NCBI RefSeq assembly: GCF_030408775.1
Contig: NZ_CP047210.1
Span: 682,001 to 746,000 of the forward strand
Source of the DNA: Corynebacterium fournieri
GTDB lineage: Bacteria > Actinomycetota > Actinomycetes > Mycobacteriales > Mycobacteriaceae
Direction of reading: 5' to 3'
DNA: 64,000 bases
Shown here: positions 3,117-61,784 of the stretch, in pieces
How positions within the stretch are numbered: position 1 is the first letter of the stretch
How the letters are laid out: every line of letters starts with the position of its first letter
The notes under the pieces: model-generated
The model's database searches: none
Seen by the model: only the letters and a program-made list of their open reading frames with translations
Told to the model about the DNA's origin: nothing
Made by a program: the position numbers and the translations under genes

Positions 3117-4597
3117 TTTTGCGGCGCTACGCAGAAGAGGCTGACACGCGCCCGGCGAATGCCGGCCGGTCCCTGAAGGGCAGTCTCTCCGTCCTTGCGA
3201 GCCTGATCGTCGCCGTGGTCATCCTCCTGACAGCTCTGTTTACCTACCGGCTGTCGGAGACGACCCGGCTGACGGTGATGGATGACGACTTGCGCACGCG
3301 CACTTACGGGGTCGCGCTGCAGCTGCAGGAGCTTGAGGCTGACGACGCCGAAGGTTACGAGGACGTACTCGCGCAGTTCCGGCGCGCGATGCCGTGGGTG
3401 AAGGTCGCTGCGGCAGCGCCCGGCTCCAACGTCTACTACGGCGACCCGGTCCCGGTTGCGGGGCCGTACGCCGCGACGTCGTCGGGCGACATGCTTTCGA
3501 CACGGACGGTCGCGGGCGAGCGCGTGATGGTACGCCGCAGCGACTCCGGTGTGACCGTGGCGATGTCGCAGCAGTTGGACGTGTTCAACATTGTCTCCGG
3601 CAGCTGGGGCGCCGCGGCCCTCGTCATCGCAGGCACCGGCGGCCTGCTGGCGTGGATCGCTGGCGCGGCGATCTCCGCAGTCGGTTTGCGCCCGGTGCGC
3701 AGGCTGCACCGGGCGATCGACGCCGCGAACCAGTCCGACCAGCTCACCGAGTTGCCCGTGGAAGGCGACGACGAATTCGCGGAGATCACCACCTCGGTGA
3801 ACAAGATGATCTCCACGCTGGAGGATTCGAAGACGCGGCAGGCGCAGCTGGTGGCCGACGCCGGCCACGAGCTGAAGACGCCGCTGACCTCCATGCGCAC
3901 CAACATCGAGCTGTTGATGATGCTGTACAACACCGGCCGCCAGGACCAGATCTCCGAGCAGGACCGAAAGGATCTCGAGCGCGATGTGATGGCGCAGATG
4001 GAGGAGATGTCCATCCTCATCGGCGATCTGGTCAACCTCGCTCGAGACGAAGCTCAGGGCGCCGAGCCGGAGGACTTCCGCCTGGACGAGGTGCTGGAAG
4101 ATGCCCTCGACCGCGTGCGGCGCCGCCGCCCCGACTTGGCGTTCGAATTCGAGGCGGACCCGTGGGTCATCCACGGCGACCGCTTCGCAATGGGACGCGC
4201 TCCCATCAACCTGATCGACAACGCCGCGAAGTGGTCGCCGAAGGACGGCACGGTGCGTGTGTCGTTGAAGGCGGCGAAGCGCAACGCGGTGCTGATCGTG
4301 GACGACTCCGGCCCGGGCATCCCGCCGGAAGAGCGCGAAAAGGTCTTTGAGCGCTTCTACCGCGCGCCGGAGTCGCGCTCCATGCCGGGCTCCGGGCTGG
4401 GCCTGGCCATTGTCAAGCAGGTCTTCGACCGCCACAACGCCACGATCGTGGCGGAGGAATCCGACGACGGCGGCGCACGCTTCCGTGTCGTGTTCCCGGG
4501 GCACCCGCCCGAGACGGACACCGCGGACGCGGCGGACACTGACAGCGCTGCGGCGGGGAACACCGCCCGTGTGATCCCGCGCAAGAGTTACAGCTGA
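3113..4597 (+). CDS. mprB: Sensor histidine kinase (MprB/CgtS2-like)
   Basis: A 494-residue membrane kinase. There are transmembrane helices near residues 23-45 and 163-187, an extracytoplasmic sensor of about 115 residues between them, then a HAMP linker. The dimerisation helix carries the phospho-acceptor His in HELKTPLTS (about residue 252). The ATPase domain shows the N box (NLIDNAAKW), DDSGPGIP and [11 protein letters not shown]. The GTG start overlaps the mprA stop. It would phosphorylate MprA in response to cell-envelope stress, based on the family and on the adjacent HtrA protease. The Ala/Asp/Thr-rich C-terminal tail is low-complexity. Confidence 0.93.
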
Positions 4598-8447: not shown

Positions 8448-8522
8448 TTTGGTGTGTGCGCTCCTTGACTCTGCCGGGTCGTAGCCGGGTTGTGCCGTGT
8501 GTGGGCTGTAGGCTTTGCGTTT

Positions 8523-9497
8523 ATGCGGAATTCTACTGACCAGCCCGTGCAGGACGTGAGTGCTTCGGTGAAGACGGTTGTTGTGCCTGCGGCGGGGATG
8601 GGTACGCGTTTTTTGCCGGCGACGAAGACGGTGCCGAAGGAGTTGCTTCCGGTGGTAGATACTCCTGGCATTGAGTTGATTGCGGAGGAGGCTGCTGCGG
8701 CTGGGGCGCAGCGTCTTGCTGTGGTGGTCGCGCCGAATAAAGAAGAGATCATGCGTCATTTCGGCGAGTTTGAGCAGCTGCAGCAGTTGATGGTTGCCCG
8801 CGGCAAGGATGCGCAGGCTGAGAAGGTCGCGCGTGCCAATGGGCTGATTGAAGCTGTGGCGGTGACTCAGGAGGAGCCGCTTGGTTTGGGGCATGCGGTT
8901 GGCTGTGCTGAGTCGGCGTTGGATGACGATGAAGATGTTGTGGCTGTCATGTTGCCGGATGATTTGGTGTTGCCGGTTGGTGTGATGGACAAGATGGTTG
9001 CGGTGCGCCGCGAGCTTGGTGGGTCGGTGTTGTGCGCGTTTAACGTCTCTCGCGATGAGGTGTTCAACTACGGCGTGTTTGACGTGGAGGATGCTGAGGC
9101 CCAGGTTGATGGTGTTGAGGTGTTGAAGGTGCGTGGCATGGTGGAAAAGCCTGCTGTGGAGGATGCGCCGTCGACGTTGGTGGCCACTGGTCGGTATTTG
9201 TTGGATCGGGGCATTTTTGATGCTCTGCGTCGGATTGAGCCGGGCAAGGGTGGGGAGTTGCAGCTCACGGATGCGATTGAGTTGATGATTTCTGAGGGGC
9301 ATCCGGTGCATGTGGTGGTGCATGAGGGCAAGCGCCATGATTTGGGTAACCCGGGTGGGTATATCCCGGCGAATGTGGATTTTGGTTTGCGGGATGCGAA
9401 GTACGGCCCGGCGTTGTACACCGCGGTGAAGAAGATCATCGCCGAGTACGAAGCAGAACACCCGGAGCTCGCAGCCAAGACGCAGGACAACGCGTAA
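8523..9497 (+). CDS. galU: UTP--glucose-1-phosphate uridylyltransferase
   Basis: A 324-residue enzyme making UDP-glucose. The nucleotide-binding motif GMGTRFLPATK lies at residues 25-35, followed by KELLPVVDTP; PGKGGELQLTDAI and KRHDLGNPGGY are further family motifs. UDP-glucose feeds trehalose and cell-wall glycan synthesis, and here could also feed the SqdB-like enzyme at 50266. An ATG at 8523 is chosen; an earlier start at 8490 would add a non-conserved tail. Codon use is unusual: the coding strand is rich in G and T and poor in C up to about 9400, unlike every neighbour. Confidence 0.95.
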   Translation: MRNSTDQPVQDVSASVKTVVVPAAGMGTRFLPATKTVPKELLPVVDTPGIELIAEEAAAAGAQRLAVVVAPNKEEIMRHFGEFEQLQQLMVARGKDAQAEKVARANGLIEAVAVTQEEPLGLGHAVGCAESALDDDEDVVAVMLPDDLVLPVGVMDKMVAVRRELGGSVLCAFNVSRDEVFNYGVFDVEDAEAQVDGVEVLKVRGMVEKPAVEDAPSTLVATGRYLLDRGIFDALRRIEPGKGGELQLTDAIELMISEGHPVHVVVHEGKRHDLGNPGGYIPANVDFGLRDAKYGPALYTAVKKIIAEYEAEHPELAAKTQDNA

Positions 9498-48706: not shown

Positions 48707-49153
48707 ATGGTCATGCGCCGTAAGCTCGCCGCCGCAGTCAGCGTGTTCGCGCTGGCCGGCTGCGGCGCGCACGGAACCGAAATGGGGCTGCAGGATGCCG
48801 CGCTGGCCGGGGACTTCACCGTCGCGGACGTGGCGGGGCCGGGGGTGGAGCGGGCTTACGTGTTTTGCCCGTACACGGACAAAGCCGAAGCGCAGCGCCT
48901 CGGCTTCGACCCGGGCGACGTGCCCGGCATTGACGGCAACTCCAAGGCCTGGGAGACGGCCTCCGGCATCGGGGTGATAGCTGACGGCCGTGCTGAGATT
49001 GAGTGGTTCGACCCACGCAAAGTCGACGCCTGCGGGCCGGGGGTGGAGCCGTACCAGGAGATCGACCCGGCAGCGACGGTGCGCGGAACCGCCGAGACCC
49101 GCGAGTACGCGGGCGGGGAGACCGCCGAGGTCACCGTCTTGCGCTTCGGATGA
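48707..49153 (+). CDS. Small predicted lipoprotein
   Basis: A 148-residue protein with an N-terminal signal peptide and lipobox (LAGC, Cys19 or so), followed by a domain of about 125 residues containing FCPYTDKAEAQRLGF and RAEIEWFDPRKVDACG. Two further cysteines could form a disulphide outside the cell. I do not recognise the family. It follows gapB by two bases, so it is on the same transcript, and its 3' end overlaps the convergent glycosyltransferase gene by 23 bases. Confidence 0.75.
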   Translation: MVMRRKLAAAVSVFALAGCGAHGTEMGLQDAALAGDFTVADVAGPGVERAYVFCPYTDKAEAQRLGFDPGDVPGIDGNSKAWETASGIGVIADGRAEIEWFDPRKVDACGPGVEPYQEIDPAATVRGTAETREYAGGETAEVTVLRFG

Positions 49154-50258
49154 CCTCGTCGTAGTAGCCCAGCACTGTCTCAGTGGAGGCGCGCCACGTC
49201 CAACGCAGCGCCTCCGCGCGCGCCGCGTTGGACATGCGTGAGCGGGTGTCCGCGTCGGTGAGCAGGCACTCGATCGGCTCCGCCCAGGCAGCGTCGGGCG
49301 CAGCGGGGTCGACCAGGAATCCGGTGGTGTCGTCGACGACGAACGGCAGCCCGCCCGCGTTCGCCGCCACCACTGGCACGCCCGAGGCGAAGGCTTCGAG
49401 CGCGGCGAACCCGAGCGTTTCGGTGGTGGAGGGAAACAGCAGCGCATCGCCGCAGGCGTACGCCGCGTACAGGTCTGCACCGGACAGGTAGCCGGTAAAC
49501 GTCGCCCAGGCGGGCGGGTCGGCGCGTAGCTCGTCGTAGAGTGGGCCCTCGCCGACCAGCGCCAGGCGCGCATTGGGCACGCGGCGGCGCACCTCGCGCA
49601 TGATCGGGATGCAGCGCTCGACGGACTTCTCCGCGGAGATGCGGCCGACGAAGATGACGAGGGGGTCGTCCGGATGACCGTCGCTAAGCAAGCTGCGCAT
49701 CTCGCGCGTGCGGGCGGCCGGGGTGAAGTGCTCGGTGTCGACCGCCTTCGGCCACAAGCGCACGTTGTCGATGCCGTACTCGGCCGCCTTGTCCATCATC
49801 GGCCCCGAGGTGACCATGTTGATGCCCGCGCGACCGTGGAAGGTGCGCAGGCCCCACTTGGCAATCGGGCTGACCCACGGAATGCCAAGTTTGTGGCAGT
49901 ACTCGGGCACGTCCGTGTGGAAGGAGGCGATGACGGGATAGCGCCGTGCGACGACGAGGGTGGACCAGCCGGCCGTCCAAATCGGGTTGACCGAGTGCAC
50001 GATGTCCGGGTCGAACTCGCGCAGACGGCGATACGTGTGCGGGCCGAGCATGCCGTGCTTGACCTCGGGGTAGACCTTCAAGCTTCGCGACGCAATGGGC
50101 ACCACCTCGAACCCCGCGTACTCAGCAGGCGGGTTGCCGGGAGCGAAGATGAGCACCTCGTGGCCCAGCTCCGCCAGCTGGTCCAGGTGGCGGGTGATGC
50201 GGGTGACCACGCCGTCGATTTTGGGCAGGAAGACTTCCGTGAGCAGCGCGATGCGCAT
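49131..50258 (-). CDS. sqdX: GT4 glycosyltransferase, sulfoquinovosyltransferase-like (SqdX)
   Basis: A 375-residue GT-B glycosyltransferase of family 4. FLPKIDGVVTRITRHLDQL at the start, SFHTDVPEYCHKLG, VDTEHFTPAARTREMRSLL, IFVGRISAEKS and PSTTETLGFAALEAFASG match the cyanobacterial SqdX and plant SQD2 pattern, which add sulfoquinovose from UDP-sulfoquinovose to diacylglycerol. Corynebacterial MgtA-type mannosyltransferases share the fold, but these motifs and the adjacent sqdB-like gene favour SqdX. It lies seven bases after sqdB. Substrate specificity is inference. Confidence 0.78.
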   Translation of the reverse strand: MRIALLTEVFLPKIDGVVTRITRHLDQLAELGHEVLIFAPGNPPAEYAGFEVVPIASRSLKVYPEVKHGMLGPHTYRRLREFDPDIVHSVNPIWTAGWSTLVVARRYPVIASFHTDVPEYCHKLGIPWVSPIAKWGLRTFHGRAGINMVTSGPMMDKAAEYGIDNVRLWPKAVDTEHFTPAARTREMRSLLSDGHPDDPLVIFVGRISAEKSVERCIPIMREVRRRVPNARLALVGEGPLYDELRADPPAWATFTGYLSGADLYAAYACGDALLFPSTTETLGFAALEAFASGVPVVAANAGGLPFVVDDTTGFLVDPAAPDAAWAEPIECLLTDADTRSRMSNAARAEALRWTWRASTETVLGYYDEVIRSARR

Positions 50259-50265
50259 GTGGCGG

Positions 50266-51462
50266 TTACTTCTCGCCCTGGGGCACACCAGCGGACTGCG
50301 CGGCGGTCCACAGGGAGCGCGCCGGGATTTTCGAGCGGTCGGCGCGCTCGGCGTACTTCTTCGCCACCTCCTCGACCTCGACGAGCAGGCCCTCCTCTAG
50401 CTTCGTCGGCTCGAGGCCCAAATCCAGAAAGGCGTCGTTGACTACGTGCAGTTCGTTTTCCGCGGACTCCTTGCGCGGGTTGGGCACCATCTGCACCTCC
50501 GCGTCCGCGATCTTTGCGACGAGCTCCGCCAAATCCCGCACGCGGTGCGTTTCCGTCATCTGGTTAAAAATCTTCACGCGCTCGCCGCGCGCCGGCGGGT
50601 TCTCCACCGCCAGCTGGATGCAGCGGGCCATGTCGCGGATGTGGATGAACGCGCGGGTCTGCCCGCCGGTGCCGTGCACGGTCAGCGGGTAGCCGATCGC
50701 GGCCTGCATGAGGAAGCGGTTGAGTACCGTGCCGTAGTCGCCGTCGTAGTCGAAGCGGTTAATCAACCGCTCGTCGCGAAGCGTCTGCGGGGTGTGGGTG
50801 CCCCAGATGATGCCCTGGTGCAGATCCGTGATGCGCAGCTCGTCGTTCTTGGCGTAGTACGCGAACAAGTGCTGGTCCAGCACCTTCGTCATGTGGTAGA
50901 CCGACCCCGGGTTGGTGGGGTAGAGGATCTGCTGCTCGACGATGCCGTTGTCGCCCGCGTCGACCTGCACATCCAGGTAGCCCTCCGGGATCTTCATGCC
51001 GGCGGTGCCGTAGCCGTACACGCCCATCGTGCCCAGGTGCACGACATGGATGTCCTGGCCGGACTCCACAATCGCGGCGAGCAGGTTGTGGGTGGCGTTG
51101 ACGTTGTTGTCGACCGTGTAGCGCTTGTGGCGCGACGACTTCATCGAGTACGGCGCGGCGCGCTGCTCCGCAAAGTGGATCACCGTGTCCGGCTGGAAGT
51201 CCTTGAGGAACGCCAGGAGGGCGTCGTAGTCCTGGGCCACGTCGATGTGCGCAAAACCAATCTCCTTGCCGGAGACCTCGTGCCATGCCGCGAGGCGCTC
51301 GTCGATGGACGCAATCGGCGTCAGGGACTCCGCGTCGAGCTCCGCGTCGATGTGGCGCCGCGACAGGTTATCCACGATGGTGACGTCGTGGCCCAAGTCC
51401 GAAAGGTGCAGGGATGCAGGCCAGCCGCAAAAGCCGTCGCCGCCGAGAACCGCAATTTTCAC
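50266..51462 (-). CDS. sqdB: UDP-sulfoquinovose synthase-like (SqdB)
   Basis: A 398-residue short-chain dehydrogenase-type enzyme. VLGGDGFCGWPASLHLSD binds NAD; VDNLSRRHID, HFAEQRAAPYSM (the characteristic SqdB/SQD1 block), the catalytic YHMTK (Tyr-x3-Lys) and RITDLHQGIIWG all match SqdB/SQD1, which make UDP-sulfoquinovose from UDP-glucose and sulfite. It is close to the family length of about 400. GTG at 51462 is chosen because AAAGGCG lies upstream; a GTG at 51486 would add eight residues. It is co-transcribed with sqdX. Confidence 0.87.
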   Translation of the reverse strand: MKIAVLGGDGFCGWPASLHLSDLGHDVTIVDNLSRRHIDAELDAESLTPIASIDERLAAWHEVSGKEIGFAHIDVAQDYDALLAFLKDFQPDTVIHFAEQRAAPYSMKSSRHKRYTVDNNVNATHNLLAAIVESGQDIHVVHLGTMGVYGYGTAGMKIPEGYLDVQVDAGDNGIVEQQILYPTNPGSVYHMTKVLDQHLFAYYAKNDELRITDLHQGIIWGTHTPQTLRDERLINRFDYDGDYGTVLNRFLMQAAIGYPLTVHGTGGQTRAFIHIRDMARCIQLAVENPPARGERVKIFNQMTETHRVRDLAELVAKIADAEVQMVPNPRKESAENELHVVNDAFLDLGLEPTKLEEGLLVEVEEVAKKYAERADRSKIPARSLWTAAQSAGVPQGEK

Positions 51463-51556
51463 TAATTTTCGCCTTTCATTACGCACATTTCCGCATAGGT
51501 TACCGGCCTCTGCGAGGCTGTGCTTGCCGAAAAGGATGGGACACCCCCGCCGAATT

Positions 51557-51568
51557 CAAATATATTTG
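51557..51568. promoter_or_regulatory. AT-rich palindrome between sqdB and the surface operon
   Basis: CAAATATATTTG is a perfect 12-base palindrome in the 178-base divergent region. It is a candidate operator or promoter element for either side; no family is recognised. Confidence 0.4.
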
Positions 51569-51640
51569 GGCATACAACTAAGTGGTAGCGTTTCCTGTGT
51601 TTTAGCGGCGTTCGAGCGTTGAAGAAGTTGGGAGTCCTCT

Positions 51641-54600
51641 ATGTCCCGTATGCCCGGAAGGAACCGCACGCCCGTCATGCGGATGACGGCGGCGGCCACG
51701 GTATTGGCCCTGGCGGGCGGTGCTGCGGCCGTGCCACTCGGACCCGTTGGCGGGGTCGCGCAGGCGCAGGTCGCGCCCATTCCGCAGGATGGCGTGCGCT
51801 TTGGCCAGATCCGCGACGACCGCGGAGACTGGCGTGCGGAAATCTTCTTCGACAAAACTATGGTGGTCAGCACCGTCGCCCACGATTTCGTGCCGCAGGA
51901 ATCCAACACGCCCTTCGGCCAGCTCGCGCAAGAGGCGGAACTCGGCGACCCGGTCTTCGACATCATCCCGGCGTCGTCGACGTTTACTCTCGAGCACTAC
52001 GAACTTGCAGGCAGAACACCGGTGTTGAAGGACACTTACGACGTCGTGGTGCGCACCAGCACCTCCACCACCCCGTCCGGCCTCAACGCGATCCGCCTCG
52101 AGTACGAGCTGCCCGACGTCACCGTCAACCAGAACGACCGACTCGCCTTGGTTGCTCCAGGCAAGGGCACTGAATACCCCAAACCCCTGCGAGGCGGAAG
52201 CTCCCGCTTTTCCATGCCGTACATCAACACCGTCTACCGCGGCCACGTGCGCGTGCACAATCCGGACTCCGACCCGGTGGGCACCCCGCGAGTCGTTGTG
52301 ACGAAAGACGGCAACGTCACCGAACCGGAGCTCGCAGAGGATTACTCGTTCCTGATCGAGCTCGGCGCCACCTCAGGCACCTACACCGTCGAGGTAGTGC
52401 CGCCGGAGGGCTTTGCCACGCCGCCAGCGAAGACGGTCGACATCACCTCGGGCGCTGCGGATCGCGACTTCGACGTCTATCCGATCACCGTGAGCGGCAC
52501 GCTTGTCGACGACTCCGGTACCCCCGTAACGGGCGCGAGCGTCACCGTGGCCGGCCGCCCCGCCACCTCGGGCGCGGACGGCACATTCACCGTCAACAAA
52601 GTTCCGGTCGGCACCCACGACGTAGTTGTCGGGGCAACAGCGGCGACCCTTGGCACCAAGCAGTCAGGCGTGAGCGTGCGCGACCGAAAGGACAATCAGG
52701 CAGGCACTATTACCGTGCCTGCCAAACCCCAGGTGGGTACCGTCGCTGGCCAAGTGAGGGACCCCTCCGGCAACGGTGTGGCCGGTGTGAAGGTCAGAGC
52801 TGGTGGAAAGACCGGCACAACCGGTGCGGACGGGAGATATTCAGTCGCCGACGTGCCGACGGGCCAGACCACCGTCGAAGTGCTCGCGGCACCCACCGCC
52901 TACGTCCTCCCGTCACCTGAGCAAGCGAATGTTTCGGCCGGCAAGGTCAGCGCCGTGAACTTCAAGATGGAACTAAAGCCGACGCCGAAAACAACGACAC
53001 CAAGAACTTCCACGTCCACACCGAAGCCGACGCCGAAAACAACGACGCCAAGAACTTCCACGTCCACACCGAAGCCGACGCCGACGACAACGACGCCAAG
53101 AACTTCCACGTCCACACCGAAGCCGACGCCGAAAACAACGACGCCAAGAACTTCCACGACCACACCGAAGCCGACGCCGAAAACAACCACCACGACGGCG
53201 CCGCGCGTCGGAGACGTGTCCGGCTCCGTGGTAGACGCGACCGGCCAGCCGGTGCCGGGCGCCACGGTGACAGCTCACGACACCAACGGCAAGGCGTTCA
53301 CCGTCGCTGTCGACGCGGACGGGCAGTTCGAGCTAACCGACCTGCCCCCGGGGCAGTACGTGGTCAGCATCGGTGTGCCTCGAGGCCTCCTCGCCCCGGA
53401 ACCGGTAGAGGTGAACGTGAAAGCTGGCAAGACGGTCAGCCTTCCCACGTTCGTCGTGCACCCTGAAAAGGCCCAGTTCGCTTGGGGCCGGGTGCAGGTC
53501 GCGCCGGGCGAGACCAAGGTGACGGTCCCGACCCGCTCCGGCAACACCACCACAGAGCCAAACTTCCGCACCTCCACCGTCACGCAGGCGCGCACTGACG
53601 GCACCACTGCGGAGATCCCGGCGGAGGAAAGCTGGATTTCGGTGGAGAGGGACGGAACGGTCGTCGCTAGGCCTCCGCGCGATGCCGCGCCGGGGGAGTA
53701 CCGCGTCGAGGTTGCTGATGCCGCGGGAGATGCGCACGTGATCACCGTGGAGGTCACCGAACCTGCGCCCATGAGCAGTCTGTACGCGGTGCGCTTCCCG
53801 GTCATCCCGGTGCCCGCGGGTACGTCGCGTCAGGCTGGCCGTCCCCGCGCCACCGTTAAGGAAGGCCCCTTCACCTACGCCGATCGCCGCTTGCCGGAGG
53901 GCACGCGCTTCGCCGTCGACCCGAAGCACCGCGGCTGGGTGCGCGTTGACGCTACCGGCCGGTTGACCTTCAGTCCTCCGCTGGGCACTGCCCCCGGGCC
54001 CCGGAAGGTTGCGGTGGATATGACCTTCCCGGACGGCTCCTCGCGCACGTACAACGCCGAGGTGGAGATCGGCGATCCGTTGCTGGCGAGCACCACTGCA
54101 CTCGGATTCGAGGACGGTTTGTCGGTGCGCCCCGGCAAGGCAGTGACCGTGATGCGCACCGGCGCGACGGCGCTGCCGGAAGGCACCACCTTCGAAGTCG
54201 ACCGCACCGAGCCGCTGGGCGGCTGGGTGGCAGTGGTGGACGAGCGCAACGGCAACCTGCGCGTCTACGCTCCGCAGCAAGGTGAGGCGGTGGAGGTGCC
54301 GGTGGTCGCCTACTTTTCCGACGGGTCATCCACCCGGTTGACCGCGGGCGTGCGCTTGTCCACGAGCTCCGCTCTCTCCGCGGCCCACAACCCCTCCTAC
54401 CCGGGTGTGAAAGCCGAGCCGGGCAGCACCGCGACGGTGCCGCTGTCTGGAACGGTGCCTGAAGGAACCGCGTTTGATGTCGTCGATGGTGGGGGTCTGC
54501 GTGAGGTGGGCGTCGACAGGCACAGTGGCACCTTGGCAGTCGAGCTGCCCGCCGACGCTCAGCTGGATTCGCCCTACACCGTCACCGTGCGCGTGCGCTA

Positions 54601-55069
54601 CGGCGACGGCAGCACCGAGGAGATCACCGCGAAGATCACCGCCGTGTCCGAGGCTGTGCGCTTCAGCCCGCGTGTAAGCGGGTCGCTCGCGGAAATCGGC
54701 GACAGCGTCGTGGTGCGCACTGGGCTGCCGTCCGGCGCAAAGCTGGTCGGTTTCAACCATGACGGCTGGAACGTGGATTACAACTCCGACACCGGAGAAC
54801 TGACCGTGGCACCGAGCACCGACGTGCCCCATGGCAGCGTGATCAAGGTGCCCCTGGAAGTGCGATTCTCAGACGGATCCACGACAGTTGTGGAGTACCC
54901 GGTCACCGCCACGGGCAAGGGTGCGCCGGCGAAAACTGGCGGCTCGAGCGAAAACGGCGGCTGGATCGCAGTCGTGCTCGGGGCGCTGGCTGCGCTTGCG
55001 GGCCTCGGGTTCGCGGTATATCTCAATCAAGACGCCATCAATGCGCTGCTGAAGCAGTACGGATTCTAA
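51641..55069 (+). CDS. Large exported surface protein with Rib-like repeats
   Basis: An 1142-residue protein. A signal peptide (about residues 1-45) is followed by a unique domain (about 46-280), two or three carboxypeptidase-regulatory-like beta domains (for example GTLVDDSGTPVTGASVTV and GDVSGSVVDATGQPVPGATV), a Pro/Thr/Lys-rich stalk with four 16-residue repeats (about 447-515), and a C-terminal region with several Rib/alpha-like units marked by FPDGSS, FSDGSS, YGDGST and FSDGST. One transmembrane helix (about 1108-1130) ends it; there is no LPxTG motif. It looks like a membrane-anchored adhesin or stalk. It is followed by the metzincin gene in the same operon. Confidence 0.82.
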   Translation: MSRMPGRNRTPVMRMTAAATVLALAGGAAAVPLGPVGGVAQAQVAPIPQDGVRFGQIRDDRGDWRAEIFFDKTMVVSTVAHDFVPQESNTPFGQLAQEAELGDPVFDIIPASSTFTLEHYELAGRTPVLKDTYDVVVRTSTSTTPSGLNAIRLEYELPDVTVNQNDRLALVAPGKGTEYPKPLRGGSSRFSMPYINTVYRGHVRVHNPDSDPVGTPRVVVTKDGNVTEPELAEDYSFLIELGATSGTYTVEVVPPEGFATPPAKTVDITSGAADRDFDVYPITVSGTLVDDSGTPVTGASVTVAGRPATSGADGTFTVNKVPVGTHDVVVGATAATLGTKQSGVSVRDRKDNQAGTITVPAKPQVGTVAGQVRDPSGNGVAGVKVRAGGKTGTTGADGRYSVADVPTGQTTVEVLAAPTAYVLPSPEQANVSAGKVSAVNFKMELKPTPKTTTPRTSTSTPKPTPKTTTPRTSTSTPKPTPTTTTPRTSTSTPKPTPKTTTPRTSTTTPKPTPKTTTTTAPRVGDVSGSVVDATGQPVPGATVTAHDTNGKAFTVAVDADGQFELTDLPPGQYVVSIGVPRGLLAPEPVEVNVKAGKTVSLPTFVVHPEKAQFAWGRVQVAPGETKVTVPTRSGNTTTEPNFRTSTVTQARTDGTTAEIPAEESWISVERDGTVVARPPRDAAPGEYRVEVADAAGDAHVITVEVTEPAPMSSLYAVRFPVIPVPAGTSRQAGRPRATVKEGPFTYADRRLPEGTRFAVDPKHRGWVRVDATGRLTFSPPLGTAPGPRKVAVDMTFPDGSSRTYNAEVEIGDPLLASTTALGFEDGLSVRPGKAVTVMRTGATALPEGTTFEVDRTEPLGGWVAVVDERNGNLRVYAPQQGEAVEVPVVAYFSDGSSTRLTAGVRLSTSSALSAAHNPSYPGVKAEPGSTATVPLSGTVPEGTAFDVVDGGGLREVGVDRHSGTLAVELPADAQLDSPYTVTVRVRYGDGSTEEITAKITAVSEAVRFSPRVSGSLAEIGDSVVVRTGLPSGAKLVGFNHDGWNVDYNSDTGELTVAPSTDVPHGSVIKVPLEVRFSDGSTTVVEYPVTATGKGAPAKTGGSSENGGWIAVVLGALAALAGLGFAVYLNQDAINALLKQYGF
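52979..53170 (+). repeat. Four 48-base tandem repeats in the stalk region
   Basis: Four complete 48-base units encode PTPKTTTPRTSTSTPK with few substitutions, followed by a partial fifth. The near identity at DNA level suggests recent duplication and likely copy-number variation between strains. Confidence 0.85.
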
Positions 55070-55082
55070 GGGGAGAACGGGC

Positions 55083-57449
55083 ATGAGAATTTCGGCGAAA
55101 GCACTCGCAGTCACCCTGTGCGCGGCGCTGGCGGCAACGGCAGTGCCGGCGCAAGCCAAGGTCGAACTTGGCGCGACGCAACCGGACGCGACAGTGGTCC
55201 GTTCCGACAAAACTCAGCCGTTTGTCAACGGCTACATCAGTCCGCGCGGGGAGGGGCGTTTCAACTACTCCCACCCGGCATCCGTAGCGGAAATTCACCA
55301 TTTCAACACCTCCATGGCAGTGCGTGCCAACGGTGAGGCGGTGACGCCGGACGCGTTTGCTCAACCAAACGTGAGCACCGATGGCACTGCCGACGTGCTC
55401 ACCTACACCCACCGGCAGGCAGACGTTCTCGTCACCAGGACCTACCGCATCGACGGCGGGCGTGTGGAGGCGAGCGTCACCGTGCGAAACACCGGCCGGA
55501 CCGCGGGGACAGTTGGCATCGACCTGGTCAACGCGCTGCCCGCGGCCGCAGACGTCAAGGCTGACACGCAGGGCGATCACATCGTCGTGCAGCCAAAGGC
55601 CGGAGGTTACGTCACCGACGTGAGCTTCAGCGCCCCGGATGCCGTCGGCGCAGGCGCCACCGCGGCCTCCGCGCTCGCGTCAGCTGGCGACGGTGCCATG
55701 CACCAGGCCGCGCGGTGGGAGCGCACGGTGGACCCTGGGGCGTCGATAAGCGCACGCATGCGCGTGGAGATCACGACCCAAGACTCCGCGCTGGACTCCG
55801 ACGGCGACGGGCTGCGCGACTCCTGGGAAGCCCACGGCATCGCGCTTGAGGACGGCACCCGCCTGCCCATCCACCGCTGGGGCGCAGACCCCGACCGCAA
55901 GGACCTGTTCCTGCAGGTCAACTGGATGGAATCCGAGTGGCAGACACTCGGCTGCAACCGCACAGAGCGCTTCGCCGCCACGCTGAAGGACTTCACCGAG
56001 TTTGCCAAGTGCGCCACCGCGAACACCAAGAGCTATGCGCCGAACCCGTCGGTGCTCAAAGAGCTGGAAGAGCTTTTTGACGCCCACGGCATCAACCTCC
56101 ATATCGACGCCGGCAAAACCTACGTCTCAGAATCCATGGCCAGCATGACCGCCGCCGAACGCAACGGCGGGGAGACGGAGAAATACACCGCCGAGTACTT
56201 CGGCGGGCTCGACGACGACGGCCGCGTGCTCAAACTGGAAGAGCAAGCGCAACGACTGCTTGGCTCGCGTCGGGCAGTGTTTCGCTCCGCGCTGATCGGG
56301 ACCCGCTTCGACGAAGAGGACAAAAAGGCCGTCACCGGCCTTGGCCAAGTCAACGGCTCCACCTTCTTCATCGCCGGCGACGTCACCAACAGCGATGAGT
56401 TGCTGCGCAACACCATTCTCCACGAGTTCGGCCACACGCTCGGCCTGCAGCACTGGGGCCGCGAAACGGCCGACAACACCGCAGGACGCACCGTCCGCTT
56501 CGTGGACACGAAGGACCCGAGCTTCACGTTCGACCGCCCTGGCTACGACTGGCTGGGCAAATACGAATCGGCGATGAGCTACGCCCACCAGTTTTCCGAA
56601 TTCAACTTTTCCGAAACACCGCTGCGTACCTCCGAGCGAATCCCGCACAAGAACGACAGATCGCGCTACCAGCCACAGGCTGGGGACTTCGACTATGTCA
56701 TCCCCGCCGACTGGGACAACCTGCTGTTTAAAACCGAATACATCGGCAAGGGCGCGCGCGACCTCGATGCCGCCTCCGACACCCCCGAAGTCACCGCCGA
56801 CGAGGAGCGCGCCATCGTCGACGAACTAATCGCCGCCTCTGCCCACAACAACGACGGCAAGGTCGGCTTCAGCCTGGCGCGAAATCTGGCCAACGACAAC
56901 GGCATCGTCACTCAGGCAGAGCACAACGTGATCAAGGGTGAGCTGCGCAACCTCGGCTCGAAGGACGACACGTTCGAGGTGGTCGCAGACTACGGTGTCG
57001 GCGAGTTCAAGGACAAGTACTTCGCCAAGGGCGACTCCAACTACGTCACCCCGGTCGACATCGACGTCTCCCCGGCAGTGTTCATCGACAACCCCGTCGT
57101 GCCCATCCGTGTCACCGTGTCCAACTCCGAGGGCGCGCAAGTCTTCGCTGAGACCTTCAACGTCTCCGCTCTCGAATACTCGCGCGGGGAGATGGATAAG
57201 GTACTCGACGAGGTACTGGCCTCCGACGCGGATCCGGAGCTGAAATCCTTCGCCCGCGAGCGCCTGAAGGCGGCGCCCGAGCAGGCTCCGACGGCGACGG
57301 CGAAACCGGCGCCTGCGAAGCCGTCGCAGAGCCAGCAGCCGTCGGGCAGCTCCGCCTCGCCGGTAGCGATCGTGGTCGGCGTGCTGCTCGGCCTGGTCGG
57401 GCTCGGTGCCGCGGCGTTCGGTTGGGCGCAAAGTCAGGGGCTTATCTAG
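55083..57449 (+). CDS. Exported membrane-anchored metzincin-type metalloprotease
   Basis: A 788-residue protein. A signal peptide (about residues 1-25) precedes a beta-rich domain with IDLVNALP, then DSDGDGLRDSWE, a calcium-binding thrombospondin-3-like loop, near residue 240. The protease motif HEFGHTLGLQHWG supplies His447, Glu448, His451 and His457; SAMSYAH supplies a Met-turn candidate at Met498. A Pro/Ala/Ser-rich linker and one C-terminal transmembrane helix follow; there is no LPxTG. AAGGGGAG lies before the ATG, 13 bases after the adhesin stop. I do not recognise a named family beyond the metzincin clan. It may process the adhesin or a host or microbial protein. Confidence 0.8.
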   Translation: MRISAKALAVTLCAALAATAVPAQAKVELGATQPDATVVRSDKTQPFVNGYISPRGEGRFNYSHPASVAEIHHFNTSMAVRANGEAVTPDAFAQPNVSTDGTADVLTYTHRQADVLVTRTYRIDGGRVEASVTVRNTGRTAGTVGIDLVNALPAAADVKADTQGDHIVVQPKAGGYVTDVSFSAPDAVGAGATAASALASAGDGAMHQAARWERTVDPGASISARMRVEITTQDSALDSDGDGLRDSWEAHGIALEDGTRLPIHRWGADPDRKDLFLQVNWMESEWQTLGCNRTERFAATLKDFTEFAKCATANTKSYAPNPSVLKELEELFDAHGINLHIDAGKTYVSESMASMTAAERNGGETEKYTAEYFGGLDDDGRVLKLEEQAQRLLGSRRAVFRSALIGTRFDEEDKKAVTGLGQVNGSTFFIAGDVTNSDELLRNTILHEFGHTLGLQHWGRETADNTAGRTVRFVDTKDPSFTFDRPGYDWLGKYESAMSYAHQFSEFNFSETPLRTSERIPHKNDRSRYQPQAGDFDYVIPADWDNLLFKTEYIGKGARDLDAASDTPEVTADEERAIVDELIAASAHNNDGKVGFSLARNLANDNGIVTQAEHNVIKGELRNLGSKDDTFEVVADYGVGEFKDKYFAKGDSNYVTPVDIDVSPAVFIDNPVVPIRVTVSNSEGAQVFAETFNVSALEYSRGEMDKVLDEVLASDADPELKSFARERLKAAPEQAPTATAKPAPAKPSQSQQPSGSSASPVAIVVGVLLGLVGLGAAAFGWAQSQGLI

Positions 57450-58818: not shown

Positions 58819-59406
58819 CTAGCGCACGTCGCGAAGCACCTCGAAGGCACGGCGCACGAGCGCGCGGCCGTCGGAGGCGTCCCGGGGCTCAGGGAGCGCC
58901 AGGTACTCCTTGATGGCAGTGCCGCCTGCGATGCCGTAGGCGTTGAGCAGCACTTGGGCATCGAAGCGCGTGGCACCTGGCACTCGTCCGCGCATACTGC
59001 TCACAAGCGGATCCGTCAGCTCGCGCACCTTTTCCTCAGCAGGAGGAATCCTGGCTGCGGTTTTGGCCTGCTCGCCAAGCAACACCAGCGTGGCGGCGGA
59101 GTAGAGGTCGAAGCCGTCTTCGTTCAGTGACTCAGTGATGGCGCGTTCCATCGCTTCCGCGGCGGACAGCTCGGCCGGCAGTGCAGCAAGCTGCTCCGCA
59201 ATCTCGAGGAAGACTGCCCTGAGAAACTCGAGCAGAGCTTCATCAATGTCGGCGAAGTAGTTGTGGAACGTGCGAGGCGACACTCCCGCGAGCTCGGAGA
59301 CCCGCGCGACAGTCAAAGCCCCGATGCCGCCTTCGAGTACAAGCCCCGCTGCAGCTTCCGAGATCGCGCGGCGAGTGGCCGCCTTTTTCTCTTCGCGAAG
59401 ACTCAT
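58819..59406 (-). CDS. TetR-family regulator
   Basis: A 195-residue regulator. The N-terminal helix-turn-helix reads GALTVARVSELAGVSPRTFHNYFADIDEAL; the C-terminal ligand domain is not conserved. Its ATG overlaps the MmpL transporter stop by four bases (ATGA), so the transporter and its likely repressor are on one transcript, transporter first. Two TTGCA-type inverted repeats just upstream of the transporter are the probable binding sites, giving negative feedback on both genes. Confidence 0.9.
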   Translation of the reverse strand: MSLREEKKAATRRAISEAAAGLVLEGGIGALTVARVSELAGVSPRTFHNYFADIDEALLEFLRAVFLEIAEQLAALPAELSAAEAMERAITESLNEDGFDLYSAATLVLLGEQAKTAARIPPAEEKVRELTDPLVSSMRGRVPGATRFDAQVLLNAYGIAGGTAIKEYLALPEPRDASDGRALVRRAFEVLRDVR

Positions 59407-61766
59407 GGCTGCACCGGCACCGGTTGCGATTCCGGCACCTGCTCTCGGTGGAGTTTCTCACCCTCGATGTCGAGGTTGGGCAGTGCCTTGTCCAGCCAGC
59501 CCGGGAGCTTCCAGGCTCGGTCGCCGAGCAGGTACATGGTCGCAGGGATCAGCGTCATGCGGACGACGAAGGCGTCGATGAGCACGCCTGCTGCGAGCGC
59601 GAAGCCCATCGCCTTAATGAACGGCTCGTCGATGAGCATGAACGCCGCGAAGACGGAAATCATGATCAGTGCGGCGGCAGTGACCACTCGCGCGCCGTGC
59701 TTGAAACCGTTAGACACGGCATTGCCCGCCGTCTTGTTGCGGGAGACGTAGCCCTCGCGCATTCGGGTGACAAGGAAGACCTGGTAGTCCATGGCCAAGC
59801 CGAACGTCAGGCCGATCAGCATGATCGGCAGGAAGGACAGCAGCGGCTGCGGGTCCTCGATGATGCCGAGCTTTCCTTCCTGGAAGATGGCGACGGTCAC
59901 GCCAAAGGTCGCCGCCATCGACAGCGCGAAACCGAGCGCTGCGATGAGCGGAACCCACAGGGAACGGAACACGAGCATCAGCACGATGAAGGCCAGTCCC
60001 AGGACGATGGCGATGTACGGGACGAGCACATTCGACAGCATCTCGGAGATGTCGTCGAAGATGGGGGTGATGCCGGTGATGCCGAACGTGGCGCCGGTTT
60101 CGCTTTCGAACGGACCCTTGAAGTCGCGCAGGCGCTCCAGCGTGGCCGTGGTGGCCTCGTCGGTGGCGCCGGAATCCGGTGTGATCAGGATCTGGGCGGC
60201 GTCCAAGTTCTCCGTCGTTCGCACAATCTGCGCGTTGACCACGCCCTCGGTGCTGGAGAAGTCCTGCAGGAGGGTCTGGTACGCGCCCATGCGGTCCTGT
60301 TCTGCCACGTTGGCGGTGTCCACGTAGGCGATCATGGGGGCGTTGCGGCCGGGGCCGAAGGCGTCGTTAGTCAGCTCGTACGCCTCGCGCTGCGGGGAGC
60401 CGAGCTTGGCCGTGCCGTCGGTGGGCATGGCGAGGCGGAGGTTGGCGGCGGGGATAGCCAAGATCCCCAGCAGCACCACGCCTGCGATGAGGTTGACCCA
60501 CGGCCGTGCGCGGATCTGGCGTGCCCAGAGCAGGCCCATGGTCGGCTTTTCGTCCTCCGGGTCCGGCACTTTCGGTCCCGGGATGCGGATGGCGAACGCG
60601 CGAGTGCCCAGCAAGCCGAGCAACGAAGGCAGGAAGGTCAGCGCCACCAGGACCGCGATGAACACAGTGGCTGCGGCGGCGAGCGCCATGGTGGTCAAAA
60701 ATGGGATGCGGATGATGGAGAGTGCAGCCAGCGCGATGAGCACGGTCGTGCCGGCGAACACCACGGAGCCGCCGGCGGTGCCCAGCGCCATGCCCATCGC
60801 GTTCGCGCGGGTGGTCTTGTCCATCTTCTTCAGCGCGCTTGCGAGCTCCTTCGGAGACAGGTCGTTCAAGCCGGAGGAGGAAATCAGCTCGTTGCGGAAG
60901 CGGGCGACGATGAAAAGCGAGTAGTCGATGCCCACGGCCAAGCCGATCATGGAGGCGAGCATCGGGGTCATGTCGGAGATTGAATCCGTAAACAGCGTGC
61001 CAAGCTGCACGCCGAGGATGCCGACGCCGACGCCGACGACGGCAGCGATCAGCGGCAGGCCTGCTGCGACGAGAGAGCCAAAGGTGACGAGCAGCACGAG
61101 CGCGGCGACGGCCATGCCGATCAGCTCCGAGGTGCCGTCCATTTCGCCGGCGCCCGAAAATGCGTTGCCGTTGTATTTGACGGTGAGGTCGGTGCCGTCG
61201 TAGCGGTCCAAAATGTCTTGCACCTCGGCCAGCGTTTCGGCAGGGATGTCCATCACGGTGTCCTGGTTAAACGTGATGGACACGGTGCCGGTTCGCTGGT
61301 CTGGGCTGAGCGGGGACAAAGCGGCGATGTCTGCGTCGATCTGCTCCTGGGGCATGCCTTGGGCCGTCTTCGCATCGCCCAATTGCTTGGCCATGCCGCT
61401 GGCCGCCAGAACCGGATTGACAATGCTTTCGGAGTCTCGCAGGTCGCCGGTATTTTTCAGCTCGTCGAGCATGTCGTCAACCTGCCCCATGACATCAGGG
61501 TCGGCGAGAGTTTTGCCTTCCGGCGCTTGGATGACGATGGAGGCGGAAGGGACGCTCATGGCGTCTTCGTCGGTGCCGAAGCGCTGGTTCATCTCCTCCT
61601 GGGTGACGGTGGAGTCCATGTCCGGCATGGAAAACGTCGGGCTGGGGGATTTTGCGTAGTTGGCGGCGCCGAAGCCGAGGGCGCCGAGGAGGATGAGCCA
61701 AATGGCAAGAAACGGCCACACTTTTCGGTATGACCAACTGCCGAGGCGGTAGAGGAATTCAGACAT
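59403..61766 (-). CDS. MmpL/RND-family transporter
   Basis: A 787-residue membrane transporter of the MMPL type, with two sets of six helices and two extracytoplasmic domains. The helix-4 proton-relay region reads GLAVGIDYSLFIVARFRNEL and its second-half match is GLTFGLAMDYQVFLVTRMREGY. MmpL proteins in Corynebacterium move trehalose mycolates or other lipids; substrate here is unknown, and drug efflux is possible with a TetR partner. The ATG at 61766 (MSEFLYRLGSW) is the family start; an ATG 18 bases upstream lacks support. Confidence 0.92.
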   Translation of the reverse strand: MSEFLYRLGSWSYRKVWPFLAIWLILLGALGFGAANYAKSPSPTFSMPDMDSTVTQEEMNQRFGTDEDAMSVPSASIVIQAPEGKTLADPDVMGQVDDMLDELKNTGDLRDSESIVNPVLAASGMAKQLGDAKTAQGMPQEQIDADIAALSPLSPDQRTGTVSITFNQDTVMDIPAETLAEVQDILDRYDGTDLTVKYNGNAFSGAGEMDGTSELIGMAVAALVLLVTFGSLVAAGLPLIAAVVGVGVGILGVQLGTLFTDSISDMTPMLASMIGLAVGIDYSLFIVARFRNELISSSGLNDLSPKELASALKKMDKTTRANAMGMALGTAGGSVVFAGTTVLIALAALSIIRIPFLTTMALAAAATVFIAVLVALTFLPSLLGLLGTRAFAIRIPGPKVPDPEDEKPTMGLLWARQIRARPWVNLIAGVVLLGILAIPAANLRLAMPTDGTAKLGSPQREAYELTNDAFGPGRNAPMIAYVDTANVAEQDRMGAYQTLLQDFSSTEGVVNAQIVRTTENLDAAQILITPDSGATDEATTATLERLRDFKGPFESETGATFGITGITPIFDDISEMLSNVLVPYIAIVLGLAFIVLMLVFRSLWVPLIAALGFALSMAATFGVTVAIFQEGKLGIIEDPQPLLSFLPIMLIGLTFGLAMDYQVFLVTRMREGYVSRNKTAGNAVSNGFKHGARVVTAAALIMISVFAAFMLIDEPFIKAMGFALAAGVLIDAFVVRMTLIPATMYLLGDRAWKLPGWLDKALPNLDIEGEKLHREQVPESQPVPVQP

Positions 61767-61767
61767 G

Positions 61768-61784
61768 TTGCACATCGTATGCAA
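61768..61784. promoter_or_regulatory. TetR operator candidate 1
   Basis: TTGCA-CATCGTA-TGCAA is a perfect 5-base inverted repeat in a 17-base site, adjacent to the MmpL start codon. Confidence 0.65.

What the first reader, a model, noticed from the sequence alone, without database searches (positions are those of the whole stretch)
49131..51462. A two-gene sulfolipid (SQDG) pathway in a Corynebacterium
The proteins match SqdB (UDP-sulfoquinovose synthase, with its NAD-binding motif, HFAEQRAAPYSM block and Tyr-x3-Lys) and SqdX (GT4 glycosyltransferase, LPKIDGVVTR and REMRSLL plus GRISAEK). Together these would make sulfoquinovosyl diacylglycerol from UDP-glucose, sulfite and diacylglycerol. 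SQDG is known mainly from photosynthetic organisms and some bacteria; I do not know of it in corynebacteria, whose envelope lipids are otherwise mycolates and mannolipids. galU in the same window could supply UDP-glucose.
Basis: partly seen in the sequence, partly recalled or inferred. Interest (0 to 1): 0.8.

Follow-up and report, generated by a model that had tools for sequence, protein, structure and literature searches.

The report
Sulfolipid gene pair in corynebacteria
This Corynebacterium carries two neighbouring genes that very probably make the sulfur-containing membrane lipid of plants and cyanobacteria (SQDG), a lipid not usually expected in this group, and many related species carry the same pair.

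Summary
On the minus strand, window 50266-51462 encodes a 398-aa SqdB-type UDP-sulfoquinovose synthase: 44% identical to crystallised Arabidopsis SQD1 and 69% to the S. meliloti pSymB homologue. The catalytic residues listed for SQD1/Agl3 are present except one Glu, which is Val in 123 of 128 SqdBs compared. Seven bases downstream, 49131-50258 encodes a GT4 glycosyltransferase. It lies on the side of cyanobacterial SqdX (39-43% identity), apart from the genome's own MgtA (33%), in two trees. SqdB is in 86 of 242 Corynebacterium genomes and the GT in 85; all 85 have both genes adjacent in the same order. The 86th holds only a broken sqdB remnant. Genes for UDP-glucose and sulfite supply are present. 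Best reading: a two-gene SQDG pathway inherited as a cassette and lost in some lineages. No lipid was measured, and the diacylglycerol acceptor is inferred. Ten searches of an open-licence library, five of them naming corynebacteria, showed no report of SQDG there. This is a new member of a known kind, moderately surprising and easy to test.

The parts
50266..51462 (-). sqdB: UDP-sulfoquinovose synthase (398 aa, GTG start; SDR/NAD-epimerase fold)
   Evidence: phmmer to SQD1 1QRR E 8.4e-98; 43.7% identity over 389 columns; NF041015 347.9 bits, under its cut-off of 575; catalytic residues invariant over 110 close homologues
49131..50258 (-). sqdX-like GT4 glycosyltransferase (375 aa), predicted sulfoquinovosyl:diacylglycerol transferase
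   Evidence: on the cyanobacterial SqdX side, apart from MgtA; adjacent to sqdB in 85 of 85 genomes
50259..50265 (-). 7-nt gap between sqdB stop and GT start: tightly coupled two-gene operon (co-transcription inferred)
   Evidence: sequence read
51463..51640 (-). upstream region, divergent from the surface-protein gene; holds GGTAACCTATGCGGAAATG, resembling an element seen by eye upstream of sqdB in a number of relatives; promoter role inferred
   Evidence: no McbR- or PhoR-like repeat found with the recalled patterns tried
8499..9497 (+). galU-like UTP-glucose-1-phosphate uridylyltransferase, possible source of UDP-glucose (not linked to the pair)
   Evidence: best family TIGR01099, 229.5 bits, under cut-off 326.8

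Best explanation
The pair is a compact SQDG pathway. SqdB uses bound NAD+ to convert UDP-glucose plus sulfite into UDP-sulfoquinovose. The GT4 enzyme, a SqdX/SQD2 relative, then moves sulfoquinovose to diacylglycerol, giving sulfoquinovosyl diacylglycerol, an anionic, phosphorus-free membrane lipid. Shown here: homology, catalytic residues, SqdX-side rather than MgtA placement, strict pairing across the genus, and precursor genes in the genome. Inferred: enzymatic activity, the acceptor, presence of SQDG in the envelope, and a role as substitute for anionic phospholipids.
For: SqdB matches SQD1 over residues 2-385. All 110 close homologues aligned, the window's included, keep GGDGFCG, His96, Arg101, Thr145, Met146, Tyr149, Ser180, Tyr182 and Lys186 (SQD1 numbering); His95, Arg101, Met145, Tyr182 and Lys186 are essential in Agl3 (PMC4388408 section 6). 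The S. meliloti pSymB homologue is 68.7% identical. Control: NF041015 rings in 2 of 14 well-known genomes, Synechococcus elongatus and Sulfolobus acidocaldarius, not in C. glutamicum. GT: in each of the 5 cyanobacterial genomes that could be searched (a sixth was not held), one protein matches at E<=1e-30 out of 13-48 candidates, at 40-44% identity. MgtA forms its own clade, 100/100; without the long outgroup rows the 41 pair GTs form one group (SH-aLRT 99) and MgtA another (100). Pairing: 85 of 85 same contig, same strand, GT downstream, gap 2-107 nt. The pair is also adjacent in 10 non-Corynebacterium actinobacterial loci, 3 Trueperaceae and one Leptothoe cyanobacterium. Corynebacterium is one clade in both the SqdB and GT trees. 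Sulfite supply: PAPS-reductase-family and sulfite/nitrite-reductase-family genes lie together at about 2.092-2.095 Mb. PAPS-reductase family is present in 82 of 86 sqdB+ and 124 of 156 sqdB- genomes (Fisher p 0.0006, not corrected for kinship).
Against: No lipid data. SqdB is under NF041015's cut-off (347.9 against 575 bits), though only 1 of the 2 ringing controls passes it. Glu147 of Agl3, whose Ala mutant keeps 12.4% activity, is Val here. The GT is only 39-43% identical to SqdX and 28-34% to MgtA. In an unbiased count of 54 columns fixed to different letters in 5 of 5 SqdX and at least 11 of 12 MgtA, the window sides with SqdX at 26, with MgtA at 12 and with neither at 16, so the GT is no textbook SqdX and the acceptor is not proved. 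In the rooted tree the order of pair GTs, SqdX and MgtA at the base is unresolved. GT looks damaged or incomplete in 4 of 85 genomes: early stop in G173, late stop in G180, split frame in G236, early end near a contig end in G129. 4 of 86 sqdB+ genomes lack a PAPS-reductase-family match. The weaker of the two sulfite/nitrite-reductase domain matches has a stop counted inside. No phosphate- or sulfur-type regulatory box was found upstream.
Confidence: 0.81

Rival explanations
1. UDP-sulfoquinovose is made, but the GT places sulfoquinovose on another acceptor (a mannolipid, a trehalose lipid or a wall glycan), giving a different sulfoquinovosyl glycoconjugate, as Sulfolobus uses UDP-SQ for a glycan.
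For: The GT varies more than SqdB in the genus (50-89% against 79-96% identity to the window, remnant and split pieces left out). UDP-SQ of Sulfolobus goes into glycoconjugates (PMC4388408, abstract start). At columns separating SqdX from MgtA the GT agrees with neither at 16 of 54.
Against: The GT is nearer SqdX than MgtA in the trees and by 26 to 12 of those 54 columns; none of the ten neighbours scanned with Pfam is a glycan-synthesis enzyme.
Confidence: 0.13
2. The GT is an MgtA-type mannosyl or glucuronosyl transferase that happens to lie next to sqdB.
For: NF053787 is the best NCBIfam model for both the GT and MgtA, below cut-off; 12 of 54 separating columns carry the MgtA letter.
Against: MgtA is a separate gene in the same genome (about 313 kb) and forms its own 100/100 clade on a branch of length 2.14; adjacency to sqdB in 85 of 85 genomes.
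Confidence: 0.02
3. The SqdB-like protein is another NDP-sugar epimerase or dehydratase, not a sulfoquinovose synthase.
For: It belongs to the large SDR family (PF01370); the Glu of Agl3 is Val.
Against: Full-length match to SQD1 at 331 bits against 50 bits for the next PDB protein; NF041015 347.9 bits against 56.9 for galE.
Confidence: 0.03

Closest known systems
SqdB of the alpha-proteobacterial / part-cyanobacterial clade (S. meliloti, R. sphaeroides)
   Same: 68.7% identity to the S. meliloti pSymB homologue over 97% of the query; Val at the Agl3-Glu147 site in that record too
   Different: In the S. meliloti record the next gene is a short (879-nt) glycosyl transferase; R. sphaeroides has an sqdBDC operon (PMC11346425 passages); neither is SqdX
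Cyanobacterial sqdB-sqdX / plant SQD1-SQD2
   Same: Same two-enzyme logic (PMC8227023 passages); Leptothoe has the two genes adjacent in the same order (L071); GT 39-43% to the cyanobacterial enzymes
   Different: A genus not known as photosynthetic, with mycolates (recalled); the actinobacterial GTs form their own group
MgtA (corynebacterial GT4 glycolipid enzyme; name and role recalled)
   Same: GT4, about 33% identity
   Different: Separate clade; separate gene in the same genome
Agl3 of Sulfolobus
   Same: Same reaction; residues essential in Agl3 are conserved
   Different: Serves glycoconjugates other than SQDG; has Glu147

Membership tests
UDP-sulfoquinovose synthase (SqdB/SQD1) | Full-length homology to SQD1 well above other SDR enzymes | tested here: met
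   331 bits against 50 for the next PDB protein
UDP-sulfoquinovose synthase (SqdB/SQD1) | G-xx-G-xx-G, Thr145, Tyr182-x3-Lys186 and the residues essential in Agl3 (His95, Arg101, Met145) | tested here: met
   present in the window and invariant in 110 close homologues (residue list)
UDP-sulfoquinovose synthase (SqdB/SQD1) | Glu147/Tyr148 pair of Agl3 | tested here: inconclusive
   Tyr present, Glu replaced by Val; Val in 123 of 128 SqdBs, Glu in 5 (L200-L204)
UDP-sulfoquinovose synthase (SqdB/SQD1) | NCBIfam NF041015 curated cut-off (575 bits) | tested here: not met
   347.9 bits; of the two controls that ring, S. elongatus and S. acidocaldarius, only one passes, so the cut-off leaves out one of them too
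UDP-sulfoquinovose synthase (SqdB/SQD1) | Makes UDP-SQ from UDP-glucose and sulfite | not testable with these tools
   needs assay
SqdX/SQD2 sulfoquinovosyltransferase | Falls with cyanobacterial SqdX, apart from MgtA, PimA, PimB and MshA | tested here: met
   The 5 cyanobacterial anchors are called SqdX because each is the sole strong match in its genome and, in Leptothoe, because it adjoins sqdB; not by assay. Base order of the rooted tree is unresolved
SqdX/SQD2 sulfoquinovosyltransferase | SqdX letters at columns that separate SqdX from MgtA | tested here: inconclusive
   32 of 32 under a filter that includes the corynebacterial rows themselves (circular in part); 26 SqdX, 12 MgtA, 16 neither of 54 under a filter that leaves them out
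SqdX/SQD2 sulfoquinovosyltransferase | GT4 with EX7E motif | tested here: met
   ETLGFAALE at residue 280; PF00534 and PF13439
SqdX/SQD2 sulfoquinovosyltransferase | Genetic linkage to sqdB | tested here: met
   85 of 85 genomes
SqdX/SQD2 sulfoquinovosyltransferase | Transfers SQ to diacylglycerol | not testable with these tools
   needs assay or lipidomics
MgtA-type glycosyltransferase (considered) | Falls in the MgtA clade | tested here: not met

The most novel reading that the evidence does not exclude
About a third of Corynebacterium species make a sulfonated glycolipid as a normal envelope component, perhaps further modified or placed in the mycolate outer membrane, as a second anionic glycolipid besides the MgtA product. 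The GT of this lineage, with a near-invariant Lys13 and Arg20 in its N-terminal loop (Lys in 57 of 58, Arg in 58 of 58 rows of the SqdX set), would recognise the sulfonate there.
Probability: 0.3. Interest if true: 0.7.

Novelty: new member of a known kind. Interest (0 to 1): 0.52.

Why it matters
SQDG is treated as a lipid of photosynthetic membranes and a chloroplast marker (e.g. PMC11278827 passages). Finding the complete, strictly paired genes in a third of the genomes of a well-studied, partly host-associated genus adds a predicted anionic lipid class to an envelope thought of as mycolates, phospholipids and mannolipids. It also says which species should have it, and raises whether it saves phosphate.

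Tried and rejected
MgtA identity of the GT was rejected by the trees. Acquisition by this strain alone was rejected: 86 of 242 genomes have a match, and the 28 Corynebacterium SqdBs in the tree are one clade; gapB lies within the fetched flank in 6 of 10 named Corynebacterium loci (L031, L032, L033, L035, L036, L049). In G219 two pieces of sqdB lie in a stretch that shares the HAD gene with the window and has no GT, which favours loss. Regulation: recalled McbR-like (TAGAC-N6-GTCTA) and PhoR-like repeats were sought in 49 upstream stretches (40 Corynebacterium, some the same species twice, and 9 other actinobacteria); none found. NCBIfam cut-off failure was considered and discounted after the control. 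No structure prediction was run.

Literature: ten searches of an open-licence PMC library; five name Corynebacterium or Corynebacteriales. Complete listings were seen for (12 papers; 3; 1), capped listings for 14 (15 of 3,098) and 30 (10 of 25). Of these I looked at passages of three (PMC8231724, PMC11278827, PMC5082522); the others I know by title and start of abstract only. No listing or passage reports SQDG or sqdB in a Corynebacterium; subscription journals are mostly missing from the library.

Weak points of my own calls. G116's GT, flagged with a stop, ends naturally and is not counted as damaged. In some searches the GT was given from residue 2. In one search the query for the neighbouring hydratase gene was in a wrong frame (7 stops), so its rows were not used. 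One search was a stray test on a 33-aa piece (no match). One search's pattern matched nothing; only its genome coordinates were used. The GT tree left out 15 of 79 gathered rows, that 19 of 79 (near-copies, duplicates; also the outgroups and L084); outgroup branches are very long. The SqdB tree is a quick LG tree without bootstrap.
Full report
What is there. Window 51462-50266 (-) is a 398-aa protein that starts VKIAVLGGDGFCGW. 50258-49131 (-) is a 375-aa GT4 protein that starts MRIALLTEVFLPKIDGVVTR. The stop of the first and the start of the second are 7 nt apart. The genome is one contig of 2.39 Mb; the window is at 682-746 kb. It belongs to Corynebacterium by its same-genus genomes.

SqdB. 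phmmer finds Arabidopsis SQD1 (1QRR, 1I24, 1I2B) over residues 2-385 at E about 1e-97; the next PDB protein scores 50 bits. Identity to SQD1 is 43.7% over 389 columns. NCBIfam's UDP-sulfoquinovose synthase model is the top match with 347.9 bits; its cut-off of 575 is not reached. The same model rings in only 2 of 14 control genomes, S. elongatus and S. acidocaldarius, one of them over the cut-off, so I do not read the shortfall as exclusion. The S. meliloti pSymB homologue is 68.7% identical and is annotated only as an NAD-dependent epimerase/dehydratase. SqdB of R. sphaeroides is needed for SQDG (PMC11346425, passages), and alpha-proteobacterial SqdBs fall with part of the cyanobacterial ones (PMC8227023, passages; PMC6946739, passages).

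Residues. SQD1's catalytic Thr145, Tyr182 and Lys186 and the His, Arg and Met essential in Agl3 (PMC4388408, passages and section 6) are present, and invariant in 110 close homologues aligned with SQD1. Agl3 Glu147 is Val in the window. Of 128 SqdBs, 123 have Val and 5 have Glu; the 5 are the more distant actinobacterial type L200-L204. This is a real difference from Agl3 and SQD1, shared by the whole clade.

The glycosyltransferase. Family scores alone are indecisive: the best NCBIfam model, NF053787, is also the best for MgtA, both far below cut-off. In a tree of 64 rows (of 79 gathered), the 28 Corynebacterium pair GTs form one clade (100/99) next to Citricoccus, and 12 MgtA rows form a separate clade (100/100, branch 2.14); the order of actinobacterial, Trueperaceae and cyanobacterial rows at the base is not resolved there. 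Without outgroups and L084 (60 rows), the 41 actinobacterial and Trueperaceae pair GTs are one group (SH-aLRT 99), the cyanobacterial SqdX rows one (93), MgtA one (100). Each of the 5 cyanobacterial genomes searched has a single protein at E<=1e-30 although 13-48 candidates were scored (one of the handles given was not held). At 54 columns that separate SqdX from MgtA, chosen without the corynebacterial GTs, the window agrees with SqdX at 26, MgtA at 12 and neither at 16. A filter that included the corynebacterial rows gives 32 of 32 with the SqdX letter, also in all 5 cyanobacterial rows, but that filter is partly circular. Among those columns Lys13, Asp15, Thr19 and Arg20 sit in the first loop, which in GT4 enzymes is near the donor phosphates (recalled); sulfonate recognition there is my inference.

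Distribution. SqdB: 86 of 242 Corynebacterium genomes (83 of 235 good ones). GT: 85 of 242. All 85 have the pair on one contig and strand, GT downstream, gap 2-107 nt. The odd one, G219, has two sqdB pieces (residues 177-262 and 273-393) and no GT. GT looks damaged or incomplete in 4 of the 85 (G173, G180, G236, G129); the sqdB match is partial at a contig end in G048 and near one in G204. Named carriers include C. mucifaciens, C. minutissimum, C. phoceense, C. lubricantis, C. pilosum, C. bouchesdurhonense and C. senegalense. In an even draw of 396 genomes of the phylum, 41 have SqdB at E<=1e-100, in 18 of 237 genera (own genome counted); none of the 14 same-family genomes outside the genus has it. 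Among the 80 named loci, the GT lies directly downstream of sqdB in 24 (L031-L051, L053, L054, L071), counted; a 33% GT lies next to sqdB in Jeotgalibacillus, and weaker or more distant ones are found in Pontibacillus (L055) and two gammaproteobacterial loci (L079, L084); the other 52 show none in the stretch held, some of them short.

Inheritance. SqdB of Corynebacterium is one clade (SH-aLRT 99), within the actinobacteria that also have the SqdX-type GT (99), near Trueperaceae, Bacilli and cyanobacteria. The GT tree agrees in that Corynebacterium is one clade among the same lineages, so the pair probably travelled as a cassette. gapB lies near the pair in 6 of 10 named Corynebacterium loci. 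I read this as early presence in the genus and repeated loss, without a species tree to prove it.

Precursors. GalU-like gene at 8499-9497. A PAPS-reductase-family match at 2092038-2092703 and sulfite/nitrite-reductase-family matches at 2093856-2095034 lie together; the weaker of the latter has a stop counted inside. The PAPS-reductase family, which also takes in CysD, is found in 82 of 86 carriers and 124 of 156 non-carriers (odds ratio 5.3, p 0.0006, kinship not corrected). The carriers without are G186, G195, G223 and G236, the last 77% complete.

Novelty. The literature searches are told in Tried and rejected. The one paper with both sqdB and Corynebacterium names the genus only in a reference (PMC5082522, passages). 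A 2026 preprint reports SQDG in Borrelia by enzymes 13-17% identical to the plant ones (PMC13228262, passages), so SQDG outside phototrophs is a live topic. SqdB as a family is widespread in bacteria, which lowers the surprise. I file this as a new member of a known kind.

Verdict. The genes and their pairing are solid; that they make SQDG is likely (0.81); that the lipid sits in the envelope in quantity is untested.

Noticed in passing
L215 (G219:C1:113000-121000), pieces at 3907-4465: Broken sqdB remnant in a Corynebacterium without the GT; the stretch shares the HAD gene with the window.
   Followed up: partly
G024:C1:1975688-1976200: A second, partial sqdB (residues 1-171, 81%) in a genome that also has the pair.
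   Followed up: no
GT in G173, G180, G236 (L135, L220, L221): Early stop, late stop or split frame in the GT while sqdB is open: possible early decay or sequencing error.
   Followed up: partly
L175 (Rhodococcus qingshengii plasmid NZ_CP054208.1), 430-11155: A 62% SqdB beside a SulP transporter, a long glycosyltransferase and an alkyl-sulfatase-like gene: a different sulfosugar cluster on a plasmid typed as mobilizable.
   Followed up: no
L200-L204: A second SqdB type (about 50% identity, Glu at the Agl3-Glu147 site) in other actinobacteria.
   Followed up: no
window 55083-57449 (+): 788-aa protein with HEFGHTLGLQH, a metzincin-like zinc site (motif recalled), but no Pfam match at 1e-5.
   Followed up: no
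window 51641-55069 (+): 1142-aa protein with Rib domains and Pro/Thr-rich repeats, divergent from sqdB; only 30-52% identical where found beside the pair in relatives other than the window's own genome.
   Followed up: no
window 51463-51640: Element like GGTAACGTA.GCGG.AA upstream of sqdB, seen by eye in a number of relatives, not counted; promoter-like.
   Followed up: no
window 59403-61775 (-), 58819-59406 (-): MmpL-family transporter (790 aa) next to a TetR-type regulator.
   Followed up: no
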